Positions 2,173-26,365 of a DNA stretch of 33,709 nt are shown piece after piece. How positions within the stretch are numbered: the first letter of the stretch is position 1; every line of letters starts with the position of its first letter. Under the pieces are notes generated by a model, which was given only the letters and a program-made list of their open reading frames with translations, ran no database searches and was not told where the DNA came from. Origin of the DNA: Maricaulis sp. (GTDB lineage Bacteria; Pseudomonadota; Alphaproteobacteria; Caulobacterales; Maricaulaceae); assembly GCA_029251785.1 (NCBI GenBank), contig JAQXCQ010000148.1:1-33709 (forward strand), written 5' to 3'. Both the position numbers and the translations under genes were made by a program.

Positions 2173-2238
2173 TATGTTGTCTCCTTGACCGGACAAACCG
2201 GCGAAAAATTCAATATTAGTCTCCACTTATGGCGTTAT

Positions 2239-4515
2239 TTAGTCCGTTTTCGCCTGAGAAGCGAGAAATTCTGTTCCACGCGGGGCAAACATAAGGCTTC
2301 GCGGGAAACCGCGAGGGGCCATTTTGCCTGCCTGGGCGCGCTTTGCCGACCACATTTCCCAATCCTCCATCTGATGCCGACGACCGGCCCCATCAAGCCA
2401 ACTCAAGCCATCCTCTGCGGCAAACACCGTGACATGGGCCACCTGCGCGCCTTTGCCCCCGAGCAATTTCACACCCTTACCCCGCGTCATCACCGGAATA
2501 TCATCGAGGGCAAAGACCAATAGCTTCTTATTCTTGCCAATCACGGCACAACGGTCACCGATGGCCGGAATACACAACATGGCCTCATCTCCATCGATCA
2601 GATTGAGGATCTGTTTGCCGCCCTTCTTGGCCGCCATCACATCCTTTTCCATCACGCAGAAACCCGTTCCCGCACCCGAGGCGACCAGCAATTTACGTTC
2701 GGGATCATGCTTGACCAGAACCAGTGGCACCGCATCATCGGGCAAATCCACGTGCAGGCGTACAGGTTCGCCATGACCACGACCACCAGGCAATTTGTGG
2801 GCATCTAGCGTGTAGAACTTACCATCGCTGGCAAACATAATCAGCTTGTCGGTCGTCTCGCACTTCACGGAGAAGGCGGATGTGTCGCCTTCCTTAAATT
2901 TGAGCGTCGACTCATCGGTGCCATGCCCCTTGAGTGCCCTGACCCATCCCATTTCCGACAGGACAGCGGTAATCGGTTCCCGGACGATAAAGGCTTCAGG
3001 AGACGCATCGGCCACAACAAGCGGTGCATCGCTGAATGTCGTGCGGCGCGCACCAATTTTGCTCTTCGGCCCATAAAACTTTTGAACTTCGGCAATCTCG
3101 GAATCGACAAGCTTCCATTGCAATTCGTCACTGCCAATCAAATCGGTCAAGCTTTGACGTTCGGCGCGAAGTTTTTCATCTTCCTGCCTAATTTCCAGCT
3201 CTTCCAATTTCCGCAAACTGCGCAGGCGCATATTGAGGATGGCTTCAGTCTGCCGTTCGGTCAGATTGAAGGTTTCCATCAAGGTTTGTTTGGGTTTGTC
3301 CTCAAAGCGGATGATGCGAATGACTTCATCCAGGTCGGCATAGACGATCAAATATCCGGCGAGCACTTCGAGGCGATCTTCGACCTTTGCCAGCCGCGTC
3401 TTGGTGCGGCGCACAACGACCTCACGACGATGATCCACCCAGATCTTCAACGCGTCCTTGAGATTCATCACACGTGGCGTGCCGGTCGGGTCAAGAACGT
3501 TGAGATTGAGCGATACCCGGGTCTCGAGATCCGTCAGTTTGAAGACCGACGCCATGAGCATTTCTGGATCGACCAACTTGCTCTTGGGCTCCAAGACAAG
3601 CCGAACGTCTTCGGTGGATTCATCGTGCACATCATCCAGCAATGGCAGACGCTTGGCGTCCATCATCAGGGCGATACGTTCCACAAGTTTCGACTTTTGA
3701 ACCTGGAACGGGATTTCGGTGATCACAATACGCCACATGCCGCGGCCGATATCTTCCAGCTCCCAGCGCGCTCGAACGCGGAAGCCACCCCGGCCGGTCT
3801 CATAGGCCTCCTGCATCGATTCTTGAGATTCGACGCAAATTCCACCGGTCGGAAAATCCGGACCTTTTACGAATTTGAGCAAATCGCGGACTTCGGCGTC
3901 CGGACGGGCAATTATCTTACGCGCGGCCTGACACAGTTCGGCGGCATTATGCGGTGGGATCGATGTCGCCATACCAACAGCAATACCGTTGGAGCCATTG
4001 GCCAACAGGTTTGGAAAGGCGCCGGGGAGCACGACGGGCTCACGCTCGGAACCATCGTAAGTTTCCTCAAAGTCGACCGTGCCGAGATCATAATCCTTGA
4101 GGATCAGATCGGCCGCATGGGTAAGACGAGCCTCGGTATACCGCATGGCGGCGGCATTATCGCCGTCGATATTACCGAAATTGCCCTGCCCCTCGACAAG
4201 CGGGTAGCGGGCCGCGAAATCCTGCGACAGACGCACCAAGGCATCATAAACCGATTGGTCGCCATGCGGGTGGTATTTACCGATCACATCACCGACGACG
4301 CGGGCGGATTTTTTGTAAGCGGATTCAGGGTTCAGCTTCAGCTCGCGCATGGCATGCAACAAGCGTCGGTGAACCGGCTTCAGCCCATCCCGCGCGTCGG
4401 GCAAAGCGCGCTGCGTAATCGTCGCAAGAGCATAGGCCAAATAGCGCTTGGACAGCGCTTCATCAAAGTTTTCCTCGATGATATGTCCGGAATCCGGTTC
4501 AAATTGTTCGCCCAT
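2239..4515 (-). CDS. parC: DNA topoisomerase IV subunit A
   Basis: Subunit A of topoisomerase IV, which cuts and rejoins DNA to unlink daughter chromosomes, working with ParE (not in this window). At 758 residues it has ParC length, shorter than most GyrA. The N-terminal breakage-reunion domain shows LPDARDGLKPVHRR (38-51), GDVIGKYHPHGDQSVYDA (75-92) and the catalytic tyrosine Y126 in AAMRYTEAR. The C-terminal part is a degenerate beta-pinwheel and I see no GyrA box, which also favours ParC. At the position of the quinolone-binding Ser of GyrA/E. coli ParC this protein has Gln87, with Asp at 91. The ATG at 4515 has a weak AAAGG upstream. It ends the housekeeping run after recO with a 143-bp gap that contains a CTGCCC-N6-GGGCAG inverted repeat at 4556-4573 but no T-tract. 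Confidence 0.97.
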   Translation of the reverse strand: MGEQFEPDSGHIIEENFDEALSKRYLAYALATITQRALPDARDGLKPVHRRLLHAMRELKLNPESAYKKSARVVGDVIGKYHPHGDQSVYDALVRLSQDFAARYPLVEGQGNFGNIDGDNAAAMRYTEARLTHAADLILKDYDLGTVDFEETYDGSEREPVVLPGAFPNLLANGSNGIAVGMATSIPPHNAAELCQAARKIIARPDAEVRDLLKFVKGPDFPTGGICVESQESMQEAYETGRGGFRVRARWELEDIGRGMWRIVITEIPFQVQKSKLVERIALMMDAKRLPLLDDVHDESTEDVRLVLEPKSKLVDPEMLMASVFKLTDLETRVSLNLNVLDPTGTPRVMNLKDALKIWVDHRREVVVRRTKTRLAKVEDRLEVLAGYLIVYADLDEVIRIIRFEDKPKQTLMETFNLTERQTEAILNMRLRSLRKLEELEIRQEDEKLRAERQSLTDLIGSDELQWKLVDSEIAEVQKFYGPKSKIGARRTTFSDAPLVVADASPEAFIVREPITAVLSEMGWVRALKGHGTDESTLKFKEGDTSAFSVKCETTDKLIMFASDGKFYTLDAHKLPGGRGHGEPVRLHVDLPDDAVPLVLVKHDPERKLLVASGAGTGFCVMEKDVMAAKKGGKQILNLIDGDEAMLCIPAIGDRCAVIGKNKKLLVFALDDIPVMTRGKGVKLLGGKGAQVAHVTVFAAEDGLSWLDGAGRRHQMEDWEMWSAKRAQAGKMAPRGFPRSLMFAPRGTEFLASQAKTD

Positions 4516-19269: not shown

Positions 19270-19428
19270 ACAATTCTCCTGAATACACGCGCGAGACCGA
19301 TCGATACTCGCGTAAAATGACATAGGCTTTTTCAATTTCGCGCGCAAAGGGATTGCGCCGCGGCGTCGAAACAGTTTTGATGGCAAAAAATGGCACGAAT
19401 GTGCCCGGTCGATAACAGGGGAAATAGC

Positions 19429-21072
19429 ATGACAATTCGCGCGCACATGATGGACCAACCTCTCATGATTTCAGACATTTTGCGGCATGCTGCAAATTGT
19501 CATGGCGAGACCCAAATCATCACCCGTCTCCCGGAAAATGGTGAAATCCATCGGCAAGGATATTTTCAGACCCACGAGCGCACCAAACAACTTGCGAATG
19601 CGCTCAAGAAAAAACTGAAGATCAAATCAGGCGAACGCGTTTCCACCATCGCCTGGAATTCGCACCGGCATTTCGAACTGTATTATGGCATCTCCGGCAT
19701 GGGCGCCGTGATTCACACCGTCAACCCACGCCTCGACCCCAAGCAATTGATCTGGATGCTTGAGCATGCGGGTTCAAAAGCCGTTTTCTTCGATAAAACG
19801 TTTGCGCCGTTGATCGACGGAATTGCCAAGCATTGTAAGGGTGTCAAGAACTGGATTTTGATGTCCGACAAGTCGCACCTCGATTGCGTCTCGACCAAAT
19901 GCCTGTCCTATGAGGAATTGATTGCCGACTACCCTGCGGAATTTGACTGGCCGGTCTTCGATGAAAACGCGGCGGCGGGCCTGTGTTACACGTCCGGCAC
20001 GACGGGCGACCCCAAGGGTGTCCTCTACTCGCATCGCTCCAACATATTGCACGCAATGGCCTGCAATTCTGCGGATGTAATTGGGGTGGGGTCACGCGGC
20101 GTGATGCTGCCAGTGGTGCCCATGTTCCATGTGAATGCCTGGGGGATCCCCTATGCCTGTCCAATGAGTGGCGCAACTCTGGTCATGCCGGGCGCGCAGA
20201 TGGATGGTCCCAGTATCCACGAATTGCTGGAATCGGAGAATGTCACCTACGTCGCCGGCGTGCCAACGGTCTGGCTTGGATTGCTGGAATACCTGCAGAA
20301 GAACAATAAGCGGATCGATAGCGTACAACGCGTGCTGATCGGTGGGTCAGCCCTGCCGGAAGCCTTATTACGCGCTTATGAAGACGAGTACGGTGTCGAG
20401 ATGCAGCAAGGTTGGGGGATGACGGAGATGAGCCCGCTCGGGACCGTCAATGTCCCGCTTCCCAAGCATGACGATCTGTCACGCGAAGAGATAATCAAGA
20501 TCAAGCTCAAACAGGGGCGTCTGGTTTACGGCGTCGGCATGCGTATCGTCGATGATGAAGGTAATGAATTGCCATGGGATGGGGCAAGCTCCGGCCATGT
20601 TCAGGTGCGGGGGCCTTGGGTCTCTTCGGGTTATTTCCGCGGCGCCGGAGCGGACAGCTTCACCAAGGACGGTTGGTTTCAAACCGGCGATGTCGCACAT
20701 CTGGATGGCGATGGATATATGACCATCACGGATAGATCCAAGGATGTCATCAAGACCGGTGGCGAGTGGATCTCATCCATTGATCTTGAAAATGCAGCGA
20801 TGGGGCACCCCTCAGTTGCCATGGCGGCCGTTGTCGGACGACCTCACCCCAAATGGCAAGAGCGCCCTTTGATGGTGATCCAACTCCGGGAAGGGTTTGA
20901 GCCTGACCCCAACTCAATTCTTGAATATTTGAGTGGGCAGGTTCCGAAATGGTGGCTTCCAGACGGGATTGAATTTATCGACGAAATGCCGATTGGCGCG
21001 ACCGGCAAAATTCTAAAAACCAAATTACGCGAAATCTACGCCGATTACGTCTTCCCCGATGTTGATGCCTGA
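19429..21072 (+). CDS. Fatty-acyl-CoA synthetase, AlkK-like
   Basis: ATP-dependent acyl-CoA ligase of the ANL superfamily, activating a free fatty acid through an acyl-adenylate. The 547-residue protein has the AMP-binding P-loop [11 protein letters not shown] (187-197), the acyl-pocket segment [12 protein letters not shown], the GWGMTEMSP motif, the hinge region [20 protein letters not shown], and the A10 lysine in [13 protein letters not shown] near the end. The sequence style (start [15 protein letters not shown]) resembles medium/long-chain AlkK enzymes. Chain length cannot be deduced. The ATG at 19429 has AGGGGA 7 nt upstream. A strong terminator follows 24 bp after the stop, so it is a single-gene unit. 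Confidence 0.93.
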
Positions 21073-21447: not shown

Positions 21448-23076
21448 TTAGCCGTCTGACGCTGACGGGGAATAGAAACCGCCGGATGCGACACGACGCA
21501 AAACGTTCTCTAGCGCTCCAATATCCATTGGCTTTGCCATAGCCTCGTCCATGCCAACCCGTTCATACTCATCCACCTGCTCACGCATCATGTTCGCGGT
21601 CAGTGCGATGATGGGCGTGCGCTGCCTTTGCTCCGTCACTTCATAGCTCCGGATCAATTCTGTCGCCTCTTTCCCCCCCATGCCCGGCATACGGATATCC
21701 ATGAGAACGAGATCATAATTTCCATCTCGCCATAATCTGACGACGTCATGACCGTTTTCCGCAATTGTTACCTCTAAATCAAAGCGTTCGAGAAAGTTTC
21801 GGAGGACGAATTGGTTTGTCTTATTGTCCTCCGCTGCCAGAATTTTCAGAGCTGAGATATCGATTGCTCTCAGCGAGACATCAACGGTTCGCTCCTCCGG
21901 CACTTGGTTGGGAAGCAGCGGTAGACGGACATAGAATGTGAAGGTCGCTCCTTCACCGACCACACTGGCGGCAGAGATATCGCCGCCCATCATTTCGGCC
22001 AATTGCCGACTGATAGCCAATCCCAGGCCTGTGCCTCCGAAACGTCGTGTTACCGAGGCATACCCCTGATAGAACGCATCAAATAAACCATCTAAGGTAG
22101 ACTGATCCATGCCGATACCAGTATCGGTCACAACAAATTTTATCAGACGCAAGGCGGGATCATGCTCCTGCTCCACGGTCACCTGGACCGATACGCCGCC
22201 AGACTGGGTAAATTTTATGGCGTTAAAAACCAAATTGCTCAGCACTTGTCTGAGACGACCTGCATCACCGTGGAACCGCCCCTCCGCAGTGGATACTGAG
22301 CAATACAAACCTTGTTCGCGTGCTTTCACCTCAAACAACTCGGCGGCACCGTGAACCAGGTCGGCAAGCTCAAAGTCTTCGTTTCGCAGTTCCGTTTTAC
22401 CGGCTTTGATTTTGGACAAGTCCAGGACTTCGTTCAAAAGGGACAGCAGGCCCTCTCCTGAATCCTTGAGGATCCGAAGCGCATTTTCTTGTTCTGGATT
22501 GAGTTTCGTTTCCCATAAATAATTAGCCATCCCCAGCACACCATTGAGGGGCGTACGAATTTCATGGCTCACCGTCGCGAGGAAATCGGACTTTGCTTTG
22601 CTGGCACTCTCGGCGGCAAGCCGCTTCTCGTCCAACTCTTCACCTATCGCCTGGGCTTCACTTAATAAGTTTTGGTTTAACTCACGGACCAGCAAGAGGT
22701 CGAGCGTTGAGTCGGTGGGTGAAAAATCACTAAAATTCAGCGTACTGGCGAAGGCCCCATCCTGCCCCCCAATCACATGCCCCACCAAGAAGAGAACCTG
22801 ATCGTCACGCACCAATCCAATGCCCCGTAATAAGACATCGGGATCCTGATTGGACTTGATCAGCAATTCTTGACGGGTGTGTCCGATCGCAGCAATCGTT
22901 GTCAGCCTGGAAGGGCGTTTGAACTCAAACGCTTCGAACACGTCTTGCCCGATGATTTTCGCGCCCAATAATCGCGCAATTGAGGGCCCCACAGACAGAA
23001 TTTGATTGTCGATACCGACACGCAAGTAGGCCGGGTAAAGTCGATCAAGTTCGATGTCTGATAGATTTATCGTCAT
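21448..23076 (-). CDS. Hybrid histidine kinase with HNOBA-type sensor-partner domain
   Basis: Cytoplasmic hybrid sensor kinase of 542 residues with no membrane helix. Residues 1-130 look like the HNOBA (haem-NO-binding-associated) domain: LYPAYLRVGIDNQILSVG (13-30), EFKRP (51-55), LNFSDFSPTDSTLDLLL (113-129). A coiled coil (about 135-165) leads to the dimerisation/phosphoacceptor helix with H171 in SHEIRTPLNG, the N box NLVFNAIKF (281-289), G1 DTGIGM (318-323), G2 GGTGLGL (347-353), and a receiver domain with E416/D417, phosphoacceptor D460 in VLMDIRMPGM, T493 and K515. All catalytic residues are present. The start ATG at 23076 lies 4 bp after the H-NOX stop, so the H-NOX protein is its expected input. 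No HPt or output regulator is in the window. H-NOX/hybrid-kinase pairs are known to sense nitric oxide. Confidence 0.93.
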   Translation of the reverse strand: MTINLSDIELDRLYPAYLRVGIDNQILSVGPSIARLLGAKIIGQDVFEAFEFKRPSRLTTIAAIGHTRQELLIKSNQDPDVLLRGIGLVRDDQVLFLVGHVIGGQDGAFASTLNFSDFSPTDSTLDLLLVRELNQNLLSEAQAIGEELDEKRLAAESASKAKSDFLATVSHEIRTPLNGVLGMANYLWETKLNPEQENALRILKDSGEGLLSLLNEVLDLSKIKAGKTELRNEDFELADLVHGAAELFEVKAREQGLYCSVSTAEGRFHGDAGRLRQVLSNLVFNAIKFTQSGGVSVQVTVEQEHDPALRLIKFVVTDTGIGMDQSTLDGLFDAFYQGYASVTRRFGGTGLGLAISRQLAEMMGGDISAASVVGEGATFTFYVRLPLLPNQVPEERTVDVSLRAIDISALKILAAEDNKTNQFVLRNFLERFDLEVTIAENGHDVVRLWRDGNYDLVLMDIRMPGMGGKEATELIRSYEVTEQRQRTPIIALTANMMREQVDEYERVGMDEAMAKPMDIGALENVLRRVASGGFYSPSASDG

Positions 23077-23080
23077 TCGA

Positions 23081-23632
23081 CTATGCGGGCACCTTCTCAA
23101 CGGATCGCACAATCGTGAAATCTGAAAAATCCGCGTTGATGATGTAGCGAATTTCCCCGAAATCATTAAACCGATTTAGCAATCCCTGAAGAAGGCCGAC
23201 AACAAAGGCTTCAAGTCCATCGCGCTCCGAGCGATAGCGAATTTTGATTTGCGTGTCGCTTGCATCAAGAACCTCAAAACTTGGCATGGATGCTCCCGGC
23301 ATCTGCGCCGCGATTCCAACATGCATGCGATCCAAATTACTCAGAAGACTAACGAGATCGTTTCCTGCCATTTTCATCATCCCCCCATAAGAGGTTTCGC
23401 TGGCATATTTGATCCAATACTCCCCGAAAGACTTAAGCAATTCATCGAGCGGAATTTTGGTATGTTCTTGGATGGCACCGATCAACGCGAAAGTTGTTTC
23501 GTCGTCGGATGAGAGCCCGCTAACAAAGTGTCGTTCAGACAATCCGCTCTTGGAGACGATGGCGGACCAATCGTCCTCACCGGCGATTTACAACACCATT
23601 CTGCGCGCTGCCTGGTGGATCATTCCGTACAT
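23081..23632 (-). pseudogene. H-NOX (haem-NO/O2-binding) sensor gene interrupted by an in-frame TAA
   Basis: Read through its stop, this frame encodes a 183-residue H-NOX protein, exactly the family length. The start MYGMIHQAARRMVL (ATG at 23632, preceded by GGGAGGG at 5 nt) resembles the MYGLIN/MYGFVN opening of the family. Codon 15 is TAA (23588-23590), and the same frame then continues IAGEDDWSAIVSKSGLSERH and so on. Proximal haem His is H104 (in LDRMH) and the propionate-binding YxSxR motif is Y133-R-S-E-R137, both at standard positions. No frameshift is needed: only the one stop breaks the gene. The longest uninterrupted product would start at TTG 23542 (153 residues), lacking the first helix and with only a weak binding site. 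The gene could be a pseudogene, a sequencing error, or expressed by rare readthrough. It precedes the HNOBA hybrid kinase by 4 bp. Confidence 0.85.
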
Positions 23633-23714
23633 CACACCCTCCCTTGGATGCTTGGTCGTTAGTCTATCATGAAGGCGCCGATCGATCCCAAATTCTGAAC
23701 ATTTGCCGATCGTT

Positions 23715-24389
23715 TTAAATCCAATCTGAAATATCACTCAGGGATTTTTTGATCAAAGCATGTTCAGGCACAGTCGCATCGCTGTCAGGATGTCCTGCGA
23801 CAATCAACATATAGGCTTTTTCCGTGTCGGGCCGCTCACACAATTTATTGAGAAATCGCATTGGGTTAGGCGTGTGAGTCAATGTGACAAGGCCGGCCTC
23901 GTGAAATGCGGCCAGCATGAATCCACACGCGATGCCGCAGCTCTCGTTAATGTAATAATTCTTCATGTCCTGCCCGACCGTCACACCGCCACGCTTCTGT
24001 GCGAAGACGGCAATCACGACCGGGGCGCTTTCAAGAAACGGCTTGGAAGCATCTGTTCCCAGCGGCGCGAGTGCCTCGAGCCATTCAGAACCCGCCTTGG
24101 CCTCGTAAAAGCTTTGCTCTTCAACCTCCGCTGCACGCCGTAGCGCGGTCCGTCGCGTCGGGTCCGCGATCACGACAAAATGCCAGGGTTGATGGTTTGC
24201 ACCAGACGGCGCCGTCCCAGCGGCTTCTATCGCGCGTTCGATGATTTTGCGATCGACCGCTTTGGTGGAAAAGTCACGTACAGTGCGCCGACGTTTGAGA
24301 TTGTGGGTAAAACTGTCGATACGAGCCTGCATGTCCTGGGGATCGTATTCTTCATACCCTTCGAGGGGCGTACGGGCTTCCAAACTCAT
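23715..24389 (-). CDS. Iodotyrosine-deiodinase-like nitroreductase family flavoprotein
   Basis: FMN-dependent nitroreductase-fold enzyme of 224 residues. FMN-binding motifs are RRRTVRDFS (33-41) and APSGANHQPWHFVVI (60-74), and NESCGIACGFMLAA and THTPNP follow. Within the superfamily it resembles iodotyrosine deiodinase: the lid residues that hold halotyrosine in that enzyme (human E157, Y161, K182) have counterparts here with the same spacing (E91, Y95, K116). It also ends KKSLSDISDWI like that group. So reductive dehalogenation of halotyrosines is a reasonable hypothesis, though a general nitroreductase role cannot be excluded. The ATG at 24389 has AGGA at 10 nt; a TTG one codon upstream is less likely. 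It is 117 bp from tdh and 82 bp from the H-NOX start, all on one strand. Confidence 0.88.
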   Translation of the reverse strand: MSLEARTPLEGYEEYDPQDMQARIDSFTHNLKRRRTVRDFSTKAVDRKIIERAIEAAGTAPSGANHQPWHFVVIADPTRRTALRRAAEVEEQSFYEAKAGSEWLEALAPLGTDASKPFLESAPVVIAVFAQKRGGVTVGQDMKNYYINESCGIACGFMLAAFHEAGLVTLTHTPNPMRFLNKLCERPDTEKAYMLIVAGHPDSDATVPEHALIKKSLSDISDWI

Positions 24390-24425
24390 CAATCAAACGT
24401 CCTATCTTACAAACGACATTCAGGT

Positions 24426-24506: not shown

Positions 24507-25535
24507 TCAACTCCAGTCGAGCAATACCTTGCCGGACTTGCCGGAACGCATCGCGTCAAAGCCTTTTTGGAACTCATCGGCGGCATAATTGTGCGTGATC
24601 ACACGGCTCACATCCAGCCCGCTTTCCAGCATCGCAATCATTTTGTACCAGGTCTCAAACATTTCGCGGCCATAGACGCCTTCAAGACGAATGGCCTTTA
24701 GAACAAGCTGACCGAAATCCACCGAAATTGGTTCTGCTGGCAAGCCCAGCATAGCGATCTTGCCACCCATAATCATATTACTGAGCATGGATTTGAACGC
24801 CGGCTCCGCACCGGACATTTCCAGCCCCACATCGAATCCTTCAGACATACTGAGCGAGGCCATCACATCTTCGAGCTTTTCTTCGGCGACGTTGACCGTG
24901 CGAATATTGGGAGCCACTTCGCCGGCTAAATGCAAACGGTGGGTATTTATATCGGTCAGTACCACATGACGGGCACCCACGTGCCGGGCGATTGCGGCCG
25001 CCATGATTCCGATTGGCCCCGCACCGGTAATCAGCACATCTTCGCCGACGAGATCATATTTGAGAGCTGTGTGAACGGCATTTCCAAGCGGGTCCAGGAT
25101 CGCGCCGTGCTCGTCGGAGACATTCTCCGGCAGAGGCACAACATTGAACGCTGGCAAGGACAGATATTCCGCAAAAGCGCCGGGGATATTGACGCCAATG
25201 CCCTTGGTATCCGGGTCGAGATGGTAGCGCCCTGCCCGGGCTGCTCGTGATAAATCGCCCACGACATGACCTTCACCCGACACACGCTGGCCGATCTTTA
25301 CGCGTTTGACATTGGCGCCCACATCGACAATCTCACCGGCATATTCATGGCCGACAACCATCGGTGTTGGCACGGTTTTTCGCGCCCAATCATCCCAATT
25401 GTAAATGTGGATATCCGTGCCGCAGATCGCGGTCTTGGAGATTTTTATGAGGACATCATCCGGGCCAATCTGTGGCTCGGGCACGTCTTCCATCCAGATG
25501 CCTTCTTCAGGCTTGGCCTTGACCAGGGCTTTCAT
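24507..25535 (-). CDS. tdh: L-threonine 3-dehydrogenase
   Basis: NAD-dependent oxidation of threonine to 2-amino-3-ketobutyrate, which Kbl then splits to glycine and acetyl-CoA. The 342-residue medium-chain dehydrogenase keeps the catalytic zinc ligands C38 (AICGTDIH), H63 and E64 (VGHEYAG), the NAD Rossmann motif TGAGPIG, and TDH-specific stretches [32 protein letters not shown] and [12 protein letters not shown]. All four structural-zinc cysteines of E. coli Tdh (93, 96, 99, 107) are replaced by Gly93, Ser96, Ala99 and Asp107, so the second zinc is lost. The ATG at 25535 has GGAG at 7 nt. Its usual operon partner kbl is not adjacent but about 7.7 kb away at the right edge. Confidence 0.95.
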
Positions 25536-25629: not shown

Positions 25630-26205
25630 TCATGTTTGGGATGGCCGAAACAGATACATTGCGGCCGCTACGGGGAAGCTGAGCATGAAGGGCAAAAGCG
25701 CCAGCCCCATCAATTCGGCGACCACACCGCTAGAGCCAGACAACCAGGTGGCTGCGACTGCAAAGGCAGCGAAAGCACCAGGGATCGCCAAGACGCGGCG
25801 TTTGTCTTGCCACACAAGGACGGACATCAGGGCAGCGTAGAGGCCGATGAGGCCCCATTTGATCCAGGTGGCGAGCTGCAACGTGGAAATCTTTGGCGCA
25901 ATCACGATCAATCGCGTTACCTCTAAATTAATTCGGAACTCATCAAGGTCCAATTTTGAACGGCCAGTTGCTAAACTTATGCGCTCGCCGATCGCGCAGG
26001 ACAATTTCTCGCCCCGCAAAGCCAACCCCAAAAACAACAACGCCGCCATGCCTGCATAGGCAATCGGGAAATATCGATCCAGATCCTGCATGCGGACCAG
26101 AGCCGCGCGCAACTCAGCCGCCCCCTCACCCTGAAGAAACGCCAAGTCTTCCGGCGACTTCGCAAATTCGAGCGCCAGGATCGGTGTCTGGAAGCCACCG
26201 GCCAT
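25630..26205 (-). CDS. Multi-pass membrane protein of unknown function, probably N-terminally truncated by an in-frame TAG
   Basis: I cannot assign a function. From the ATG at 26205 (GGAGAT at 6 nt) the product has 191 residues: a soluble start with [20 protein letters not shown], then four hydrophobic helices ([71 protein letters not shown]). The same frame continues upstream through TAG (26242-26244) to an ATG at 26307, and that stretch encodes a classic N-terminal membrane helix, SRISFFAVFAFTIATLTF, directly before the stop. The intact ancestor was therefore probably 225 codons, interrupted at codon 22. A TTG at 26238 is another possible start. The 5' piece lies 58 bp downstream of the deoB stop. 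Whether the shortened form still works is unknown. Confidence 0.6.
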
Positions 26206-26365
26206 CGGGATCTCCGGCACAGGTGGCGTTCCGATCAAAACCTAAAAGGTGAGCGTGGCGATTGTGAAAGCGAAGACGGCGAAGAAGCTTATGCGAGAGG
26301 TGGTCATAGGATCTCGGATTGCGGAACGGACTAGCGCAGGGTTAGGCCGGAATGACAGGGCGTGT

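What the first reader, a model, noticed from the sequence alone, without database searches (positions are those of the whole stretch)
23081..23632. H-NOX gas-sensor gene carrying a single in-frame TAA at codon 15
Seen: ATG 23632 with GGGAGGG binding site, MYGMIHQAARRMVL, TAA at 23588-23590, then the same frame continues IAGEDDWSAIVSKSG and on to a full H-NOX with H104 and YRSER. Known: H-NOX proteins open with MYG-like sequence and are about 180 residues, and the first helix packs on the haem. Inference: one base change disabled an otherwise intact sensor. Alternatives are a sequencing error, translation from TTG 23542 giving a protein without its first helix, or readthrough.
Basis: partly seen in the sequence, partly recalled or inferred. 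Interest (0 to 1): 0.75.

Follow-up and report, generated by a model that had tools for sequence, protein, structure and literature searches.

The report
Nonsense-broken H-NOX gas-sensor gene
In this bacterium's assembled genome the gene for a nitric-oxide sensor has a stop signal near its start while the rest of the gene and its partner kinase look intact, which is most likely a recent, ordinary loss of a dispensable sensor, although an error in the assembled sequence cannot be ruled out.

Summary
An H-NOX haem-sensor gene lies on the minus strand (23632-23081) with one in-frame TAA at codon 15; the part after the stop matches Pfam HNOB at E = 1e-35. The genome is Maricaulis-like. Seventeen of 17 aligned MYG-type relatives start at the same codon and have a sense codon at column 15, so neither a later natural start nor conserved readthrough fits. 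The gene sits in a conserved slot with an open hybrid kinase next to it; five of five other slots examined in the genus lack both genes. After the stop 18 of 18 invariant positions are kept, without frameshift or second stop. This points to a recent nonsense mutation: sensor disabled, kinase left without input. Two other H-NOX genes of the order hold stops. No stop occurs in 57 domain matches of two large families in this genome, but those do not cover gene starts, a second gene of the window has an early stop, and no reads were available: a local error or mixed-strain consensus remains possible. Ordinary gene decay; low interest.

The parts
23081..23632 (-). H-NOX (HNOB, PF07700) gene, 183 codons plus stop, interrupted at codon 15
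23588..23590 (-). in-frame TAA (codon 15), inside helix A of the predicted fold
23637..23645 (-). strong Shine-Dalgarno (AAGGGAGGG) before the ATG, computed pairing -11.8 kcal/mol
23540..23542 (-). TTG (codon 31), the first common in-frame start after the stop; computed pairing only -1.7 kcal/mol
21448..23076 (-). partner hybrid histidine kinase (weak HNOBA match, HisKA, HATPase_c, Response_reg), open, starting 4 bases after the H-NOX stop
23715..24392 (-). nitroreductase, conserved upstream neighbour
24507..25535 (-). zinc-type alcohol dehydrogenase, conserved neighbour
19390..21072 (+). AMP-binding enzyme, conserved downstream neighbour that marks the slot

Best explanation
This is an H-NOX nitric-oxide sensor gene of a Maricaulis-like alphaproteobacterium that a recent nonsense mutation at codon 15 has turned into a pseudogene. 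Shown: the stop, the otherwise intact reading frame, its place in a slot shared with relatives, the open hybrid kinase directly downstream, and the absence of both genes from the same slot in other genomes of the genus. Inferred: ribosomes start at the strong ATG and end after 14 residues, so no haem sensor is made; the kinase is either made without its NO input or made less, because its translation may be coupled to H-NOX; the stop is an early step of the same loss that is complete in other genomes of the genus.
For: TAA at codon 15. 17 of 17 aligned MYG-type relatives, and 12 of 12 family relatives of either type, have a sense codon at that place. 18 of 18 columns invariant in 17 relatives are kept after the stop, with no frameshift or further stop; under a simple neutral model this bounds divergence since the stop at about 0.056 substitutions per site. 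The G000 H-NOX branch (0.51) is close to that of G136 (0.46) and the G011 path (0.22 + 0.23), so there is no sign of a long free drift. Gene order ADH-NTR-HNOX-HK-AMPB-PALP in G010, G011 and G136; neither H-NOX nor HK found in the slot of G006, G009, G014, G016, G018, whose NTR-to-AMPB gaps are 380, 2617, 526, 2748 and 747 bp. Other nonsense-broken H-NOX genes in the order: G165 with an open GGDEF gene downstream, G382 with two stops. Predicted fold: helix A 3-16, helix B 19-29, and the statement that the first 4-5 residues of helix A contact the haem in sGC beta (PMC7949132, passages).
Against: No reads, no second isolate and no strain-level relative was available; the nearest H-NOX is only about 55% identical, so the age bound is loose and the ancestral codon unknown. 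The kinase shows no decay, which would also fit a working pair. One near-invariant residue departs (Y42S; 22 of 23 kept), a weak sign either way. A second gene of the same contig also has an early in-frame stop, which would fit a local sequence problem.
Confidence: 0.7

Rival explanations
1. The TAA is an artefact: a base-call or assembly error, or a consensus over mixed strains of a fragmented draft assembly (232 contigs).
For: No reads available; draft of 232 contigs, completeness 94.96. A second gene in the same contig also has one early stop, TAG at codon 22: 2 of the 27 window genes that I could align to relatives. Everything else in the H-NOX gene looks functional. The family controls cover domains, not gene starts.
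Against: In the same genome 0 of 40 ABC_tran and 0 of 17 adh_short_C2 matches contain a stop, nor do the 9 of 14 kinase-like matches of this genome that were listed. No long homopolymer at the site. Broken H-NOX genes occur in other genomes of the order.
Confidence: 0.18
2. A working, shorter H-NOX is made from a start after the stop (TTG 23542 or a non-standard start), by reinitiation or independent initiation.
For: The frame is open from TTG 23542 for 153 aa and its conserved residues are kept. A non-standard ATC at codon 25 (23560) has moderate pairing, -6.5 kcal/mol at a wide spacing of 13.
Against: Pairing at TTG 23542 is only -1.7 kcal/mol, weaker than the median of 600 random window positions (-2.5); the ATG has -11.8. 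The product would lack helices A and B. All 17 aligned relatives keep MYG/LYG at the start.
Confidence: 0.07
3. The TAA is read through to make full-length H-NOX at low level.
For: Intact downstream frame.
Against: None of 17 aligned relatives has a stop there, so no conserved recoding. No stop inside 57 other domain matches, so TAA does not look reassigned. No recoding signal was sought.
Confidence: 0.03

Closest known systems
Caulobacter crescentus H-NOX (CC2992) and HnoK (CC2993)
   Same: H-NOX gene next to a histidine kinase (PMC10746521, passages); also an alphaproteobacterium (recalled)
   Different: There the H-NOX gene is intact; its laboratory deletion resembles the natural state here and gave slow growth and higher c-di-GMP (same passages). 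The two proteins were not aligned with the window's here.
Maricaulis sp. HCUG1438-2 and HCUG1439-2 H-NOX-HK pairs (G011/L080, G010/L081)
   Same: Same slot, gene order and family; H-NOX 55% and 51% identical, HK 46-47%
   Different: Open H-NOX, sense codon at position 15
Nostoc sp. PCC 7120 H-NOX Alr2278 (2o09 and related entries)
   Same: Best sequence matches among solved structures and best fold match, 2o09, TM 0.90, 36% identity
   Different: Intact
G165 broken H-NOX (L066)
   Same: One in-frame stop (TAG) in an H-NOX gene, with an open GGDEF gene downstream
   Different: MKG-type H-NOX, stop at about codon 65, another genus and family of the order, cyclase instead of kinase

Membership tests
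H-NOX (HNOB, PF07700) | Profile match over the family cut-off | tested here: met
   135.6 bits read through against cut-off 25.5; 123.5 bits for the part after the stop
H-NOX (HNOB, PF07700) | Proximal haem histidine and YxSxR motif (motif names recalled) | tested here: met
   H104, Y133, S135, R137 invariant in the 13-row alignment that includes the window's own
H-NOX (HNOB, PF07700) | H-NOX fold | tested here: met
   Model with the stop read as alanine: pLDDT 89.9; 2o09 TM 0.90
Functional H-NOX sensor | Uninterrupted reading frame from the conserved start | tested here: not met
   TAA at codon 15; 17 of 17 aligned relatives have a sense codon there
Functional H-NOX sensor | Haem and NO binding | not testable with these tools
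   needs protein
Pseudogene by nonsense mutation | Stop present in the cells' DNA, not only in the assembly | not testable with these tools
   no reads; indirect controls
H-NOX-associated (HNOBA) hybrid histidine kinase | HNOBA input domain plus HisKA, HATPase_c, receiver | tested here: inconclusive
   HisKA, HATPase_c, Response_reg all over cut-off. HNOBA in the window's kinase 21.3 bits, below its 23.4 cut-off (E = 2.1e-4), likewise G011 (20.8); the G136 orthologue is over it, 34.1 bits

The most novel reading that the evidence does not exclude
H-NOX circuits may be dismantled sensor first: a nonsense mutation removes the NO sensor while the HNOBA hybrid kinase (here) or diguanylate cyclase (G165) stays under selection, so that a sensor-free output protein works for a time as a constitutive or re-wired regulator before the pair is deleted.
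Probability: 0.12. Interest if true: 0.45.

Novelty: new member of a known kind. Interest (0 to 1): 0.2.

Why it matters
If true, it is a natural sensor-null next to an open kinase, comparable to the Caulobacter hnox deletion, and a snapshot of how a gas-sensing circuit is lost in one genus. As a single draft-genome pseudogene of a patchily distributed accessory gene (5 of 19 genomes of the genus have any H-NOX) it changes little.

Tried and rejected
A natural start downstream of the stop was rejected because 17 of 17 aligned relatives start at the same place. Conserved recoding was rejected because none of them has a stop at the column. A compensated frameshift at the site was rejected because the alignment is gap-free there. 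General assembly noise was made less likely, not excluded, by 0 of 57 stops in two large families. A back-up NosP-type sensor was sought through the FIST family: 0 of 19 genomes (that NosP is a FIST protein is recalled). Relative rates did not show clear acceleration of H-NOX or kinase in this genome.

Searches that led nowhere: plasmid records, no match; first scan of genome contigs with the single protein, no relative among 97 stretches; papers with H-NOX and 'premature stop' 0; H-NOX and 'pseudogene' 4, seen as listing and starts of abstracts only, none on this topic by title; Maricaulis and H-NOX 0; H-NOX and 'gene loss' 1, a Vibrio-squid review seen in the listing only. Passages of PMC8738867 were read for general H-NOX biology; the listings only served to pick papers.

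Rows dropped: one search extracted 30 loci including the window's own; for L045, L049, L054 and L055 the script placed the start wrongly and they were left out, and 8 MKG-type loci (L053, L057, L059-L062, L064, L065) were left out of the MYG-type alignment; 17 relatives remained. Only the best 30 of the 82 matches (79 genomes) came as loci. Those with stops or a split were fetched apart.

Full report
What is there. On the minus strand, ATG 23632-23630 follows a strong Shine-Dalgarno sequence; after 14 codons stands TAA 23590-23588, and the same frame then runs to TAG 23083-23081. Pfam HNOB matches the part after the stop at E = 1e-35, and the genome-wide family search reads the gene through exactly one TAA at E = 2.7e-39, the only H-NOX match in the genome. 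H104 and Y133-S135-R137 are present. With the stop read as alanine, the gene is predicted to fold as a standard H-NOX (pLDDT 89.9; Nostoc H-NOX 2o09, TM 0.90). The stop lies in helix A (3-16).

Organism and relatives. H-NOX is patchy: 5 of 19 genomes in the genus, 13 of 137 in the family, 79 of 398 drawn from the order, the window's own counted each time. In the genus, G002 and G003 carry the other, MKG-type, H-NOX.

Position 15 in relatives. In 17 of 17 aligned MYG-type relatives the gene starts at the same codon (16 ATG, 1 TTG) and column 15 is a sense codon (residues E, D, A, T, K, N or S). In 12 of 12 family relatives of either type, counted from the start of the match, it is a sense codon too (in L013 the count begins one residue off). 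Column 15 is variable, so the place itself is not critical; what matters is the stop.

Slot. ADH, nitroreductase, H-NOX, HK, AMP-binding enzyme and PALP stand together in G010, G011 and G136 as in the window. Of the genus genomes without this H-NOX I looked at five slots: in G006, G014 and G018 nitroreductase and AMP-binding enzyme are 380, 526 and 747 bp apart; in G009 and G016 2617 and 2748 bp without a match to either gene lie between them. So the pair is either old in this slot and lost repeatedly, or gained in few lineages; the slot shared with Woodsholea favours loss. Matches to the kinase from its first residues were seen only in G010 and G011 among the rows listed (the list was cut).

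Partner. The kinase starts 4 bases after the H-NOX stop and has HisKA, HATPase_c and receiver domains over their cut-offs. Its N-terminus gives HNOBA, the H-NOX-associated domain, below cut-off in the window and in G011 and above it in G136. Its branch is not longer than those of its relatives (0.68 against 0.65 + 0.16 for G011 and 0.82 for G136). It looks functional. H-NOX proteins bind and regulate histidine kinases or cyclic-di-GMP enzymes (PMC8738867, passages).

State of decay. After the stop, 18 of 18 columns invariant in 17 relatives are kept, and 22 of 23 nearly invariant ones (Y42S departs; 9 of the 17 relatives also miss at least one in their own leave-one-out count). No further stop or frameshift is seen. 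A simple neutral estimate gives at most about 0.056 substitutions per site since the stop (95%). The G000 H-NOX branch is 0.51, against 0.46 for G136 and 0.22 + 0.23 for G011. Position-specific GC of the part after the stop is 54/39/54, against 58-71/38-49/56-67 in the 15 other stretches compared, kinase included: a little low at positions 1 and 3, not diagnostic.

Alternatives to loss. TTG 23542 has computed pairing of -1.7 kcal/mol, weaker than the median of 600 random window positions (-2.5), while the ATG has -11.8; its product would lack helices A (3-16) and B (19-29). A non-standard ATC at codon 25 has -6.5 at spacing 13. In sGC beta the first 4-5 residues of helix A contact the haem and Tyr2 stabilises the pocket mouth (PMC7949132, passages). 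An internal ATG at codon 88 has strong pairing (-9.3, about the first percentile of background) but would give only the last 96 residues.

Is the stop real? No reads could be examined. Controls: 0 of 40 ABC_tran and 0 of 17 adh_short_C2 matches in this genome hold a stop; the same counts in G010 are 0 of 43 and 0 of 25. These matches cover domains, not the first codons of genes, so they do not test early stops directly. In the kinase search none of the 9 listed matches of this genome (of 14) has a stop, while single TAG codons appear in two listed matches of G011, one of G010 and one of G004, so interrupted accessory genes occur in the relatives too. Of the window genes that align, in the frame I judged their own, to an ORF of G010, G011 or G136, I count 27, of which two are interrupted inside the gene: H-NOX and a membrane-protein-like gene at 26307-25630 with TAG at codon 22; in a few others the alignment ran past the evident start or end into a stop. 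The second case is divergent and contains a replaced segment, so it may itself be decaying, or its start may differ.

How common is it? Among the 82 rows (81 genes if the two halves in G139 are one gene), three have in-frame stops: the window's, G165 (TAG) and G382 (TGA and TAA). G139 is split between two frames, and the G366 match is partial, 19 bases from a contig end. In G165 the gene downstream is an open GGDEF protein, a parallel to the open kinase here. No H-NOX partner domain was found in the four G382 neighbour ORFs scanned.

Known biology. The nearest named system is the Caulobacter H-NOX CC2992 with HnoK CC2993; deletion of hnox there slowed growth, raised c-di-GMP and increased surface attachment (PMC10746521, passages). 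A kinase without its H-NOX here would be a natural counterpart; this is inference.

Verdict. Artefact is the main rival. It is an ordinary case of gene decay.

Noticed in passing
window 25630-26307 (-): Membrane-protein-like gene with a single in-frame TAG at codon 22 (26244-26242); orthologues in G010 and G011 are open, about 40% identical. A middle segment looks replaced by unrelated sequence. No Pfam match for the part after the stop.
   Followed up: partly
L066 5795-6271 (+) and 6334-7185 (+): G165: another H-NOX gene (MKG type) with one in-frame TAG at about codon 65, followed by an open GGDEF gene.
   Followed up: partly
L067 5990-6451 (-): G382: H-NOX gene with two in-frame stops (TGA and TAA) and a weaker family score; no partner domain seen in the four neighbour ORFs scanned.
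   Followed up: partly
L068 1093-1570 (+): G139: H-NOX split between two reading frames, apparently by a frameshift; a kinase-like match follows at 2218-3432.
   Followed up: no
L039 5634-8250; L041 1831-4578: In G009 and G016 the H-NOX slot holds about 2.6-2.7 kb of other DNA without a match to H-NOX or the kinase.
   Followed up: no
window 23369-23386 (-): GGGGGG ahead of ATG codons 85-88 inside H-NOX scores as a strong Shine-Dalgarno (-9.3 kcal/mol); probably chance.
   Followed up: no
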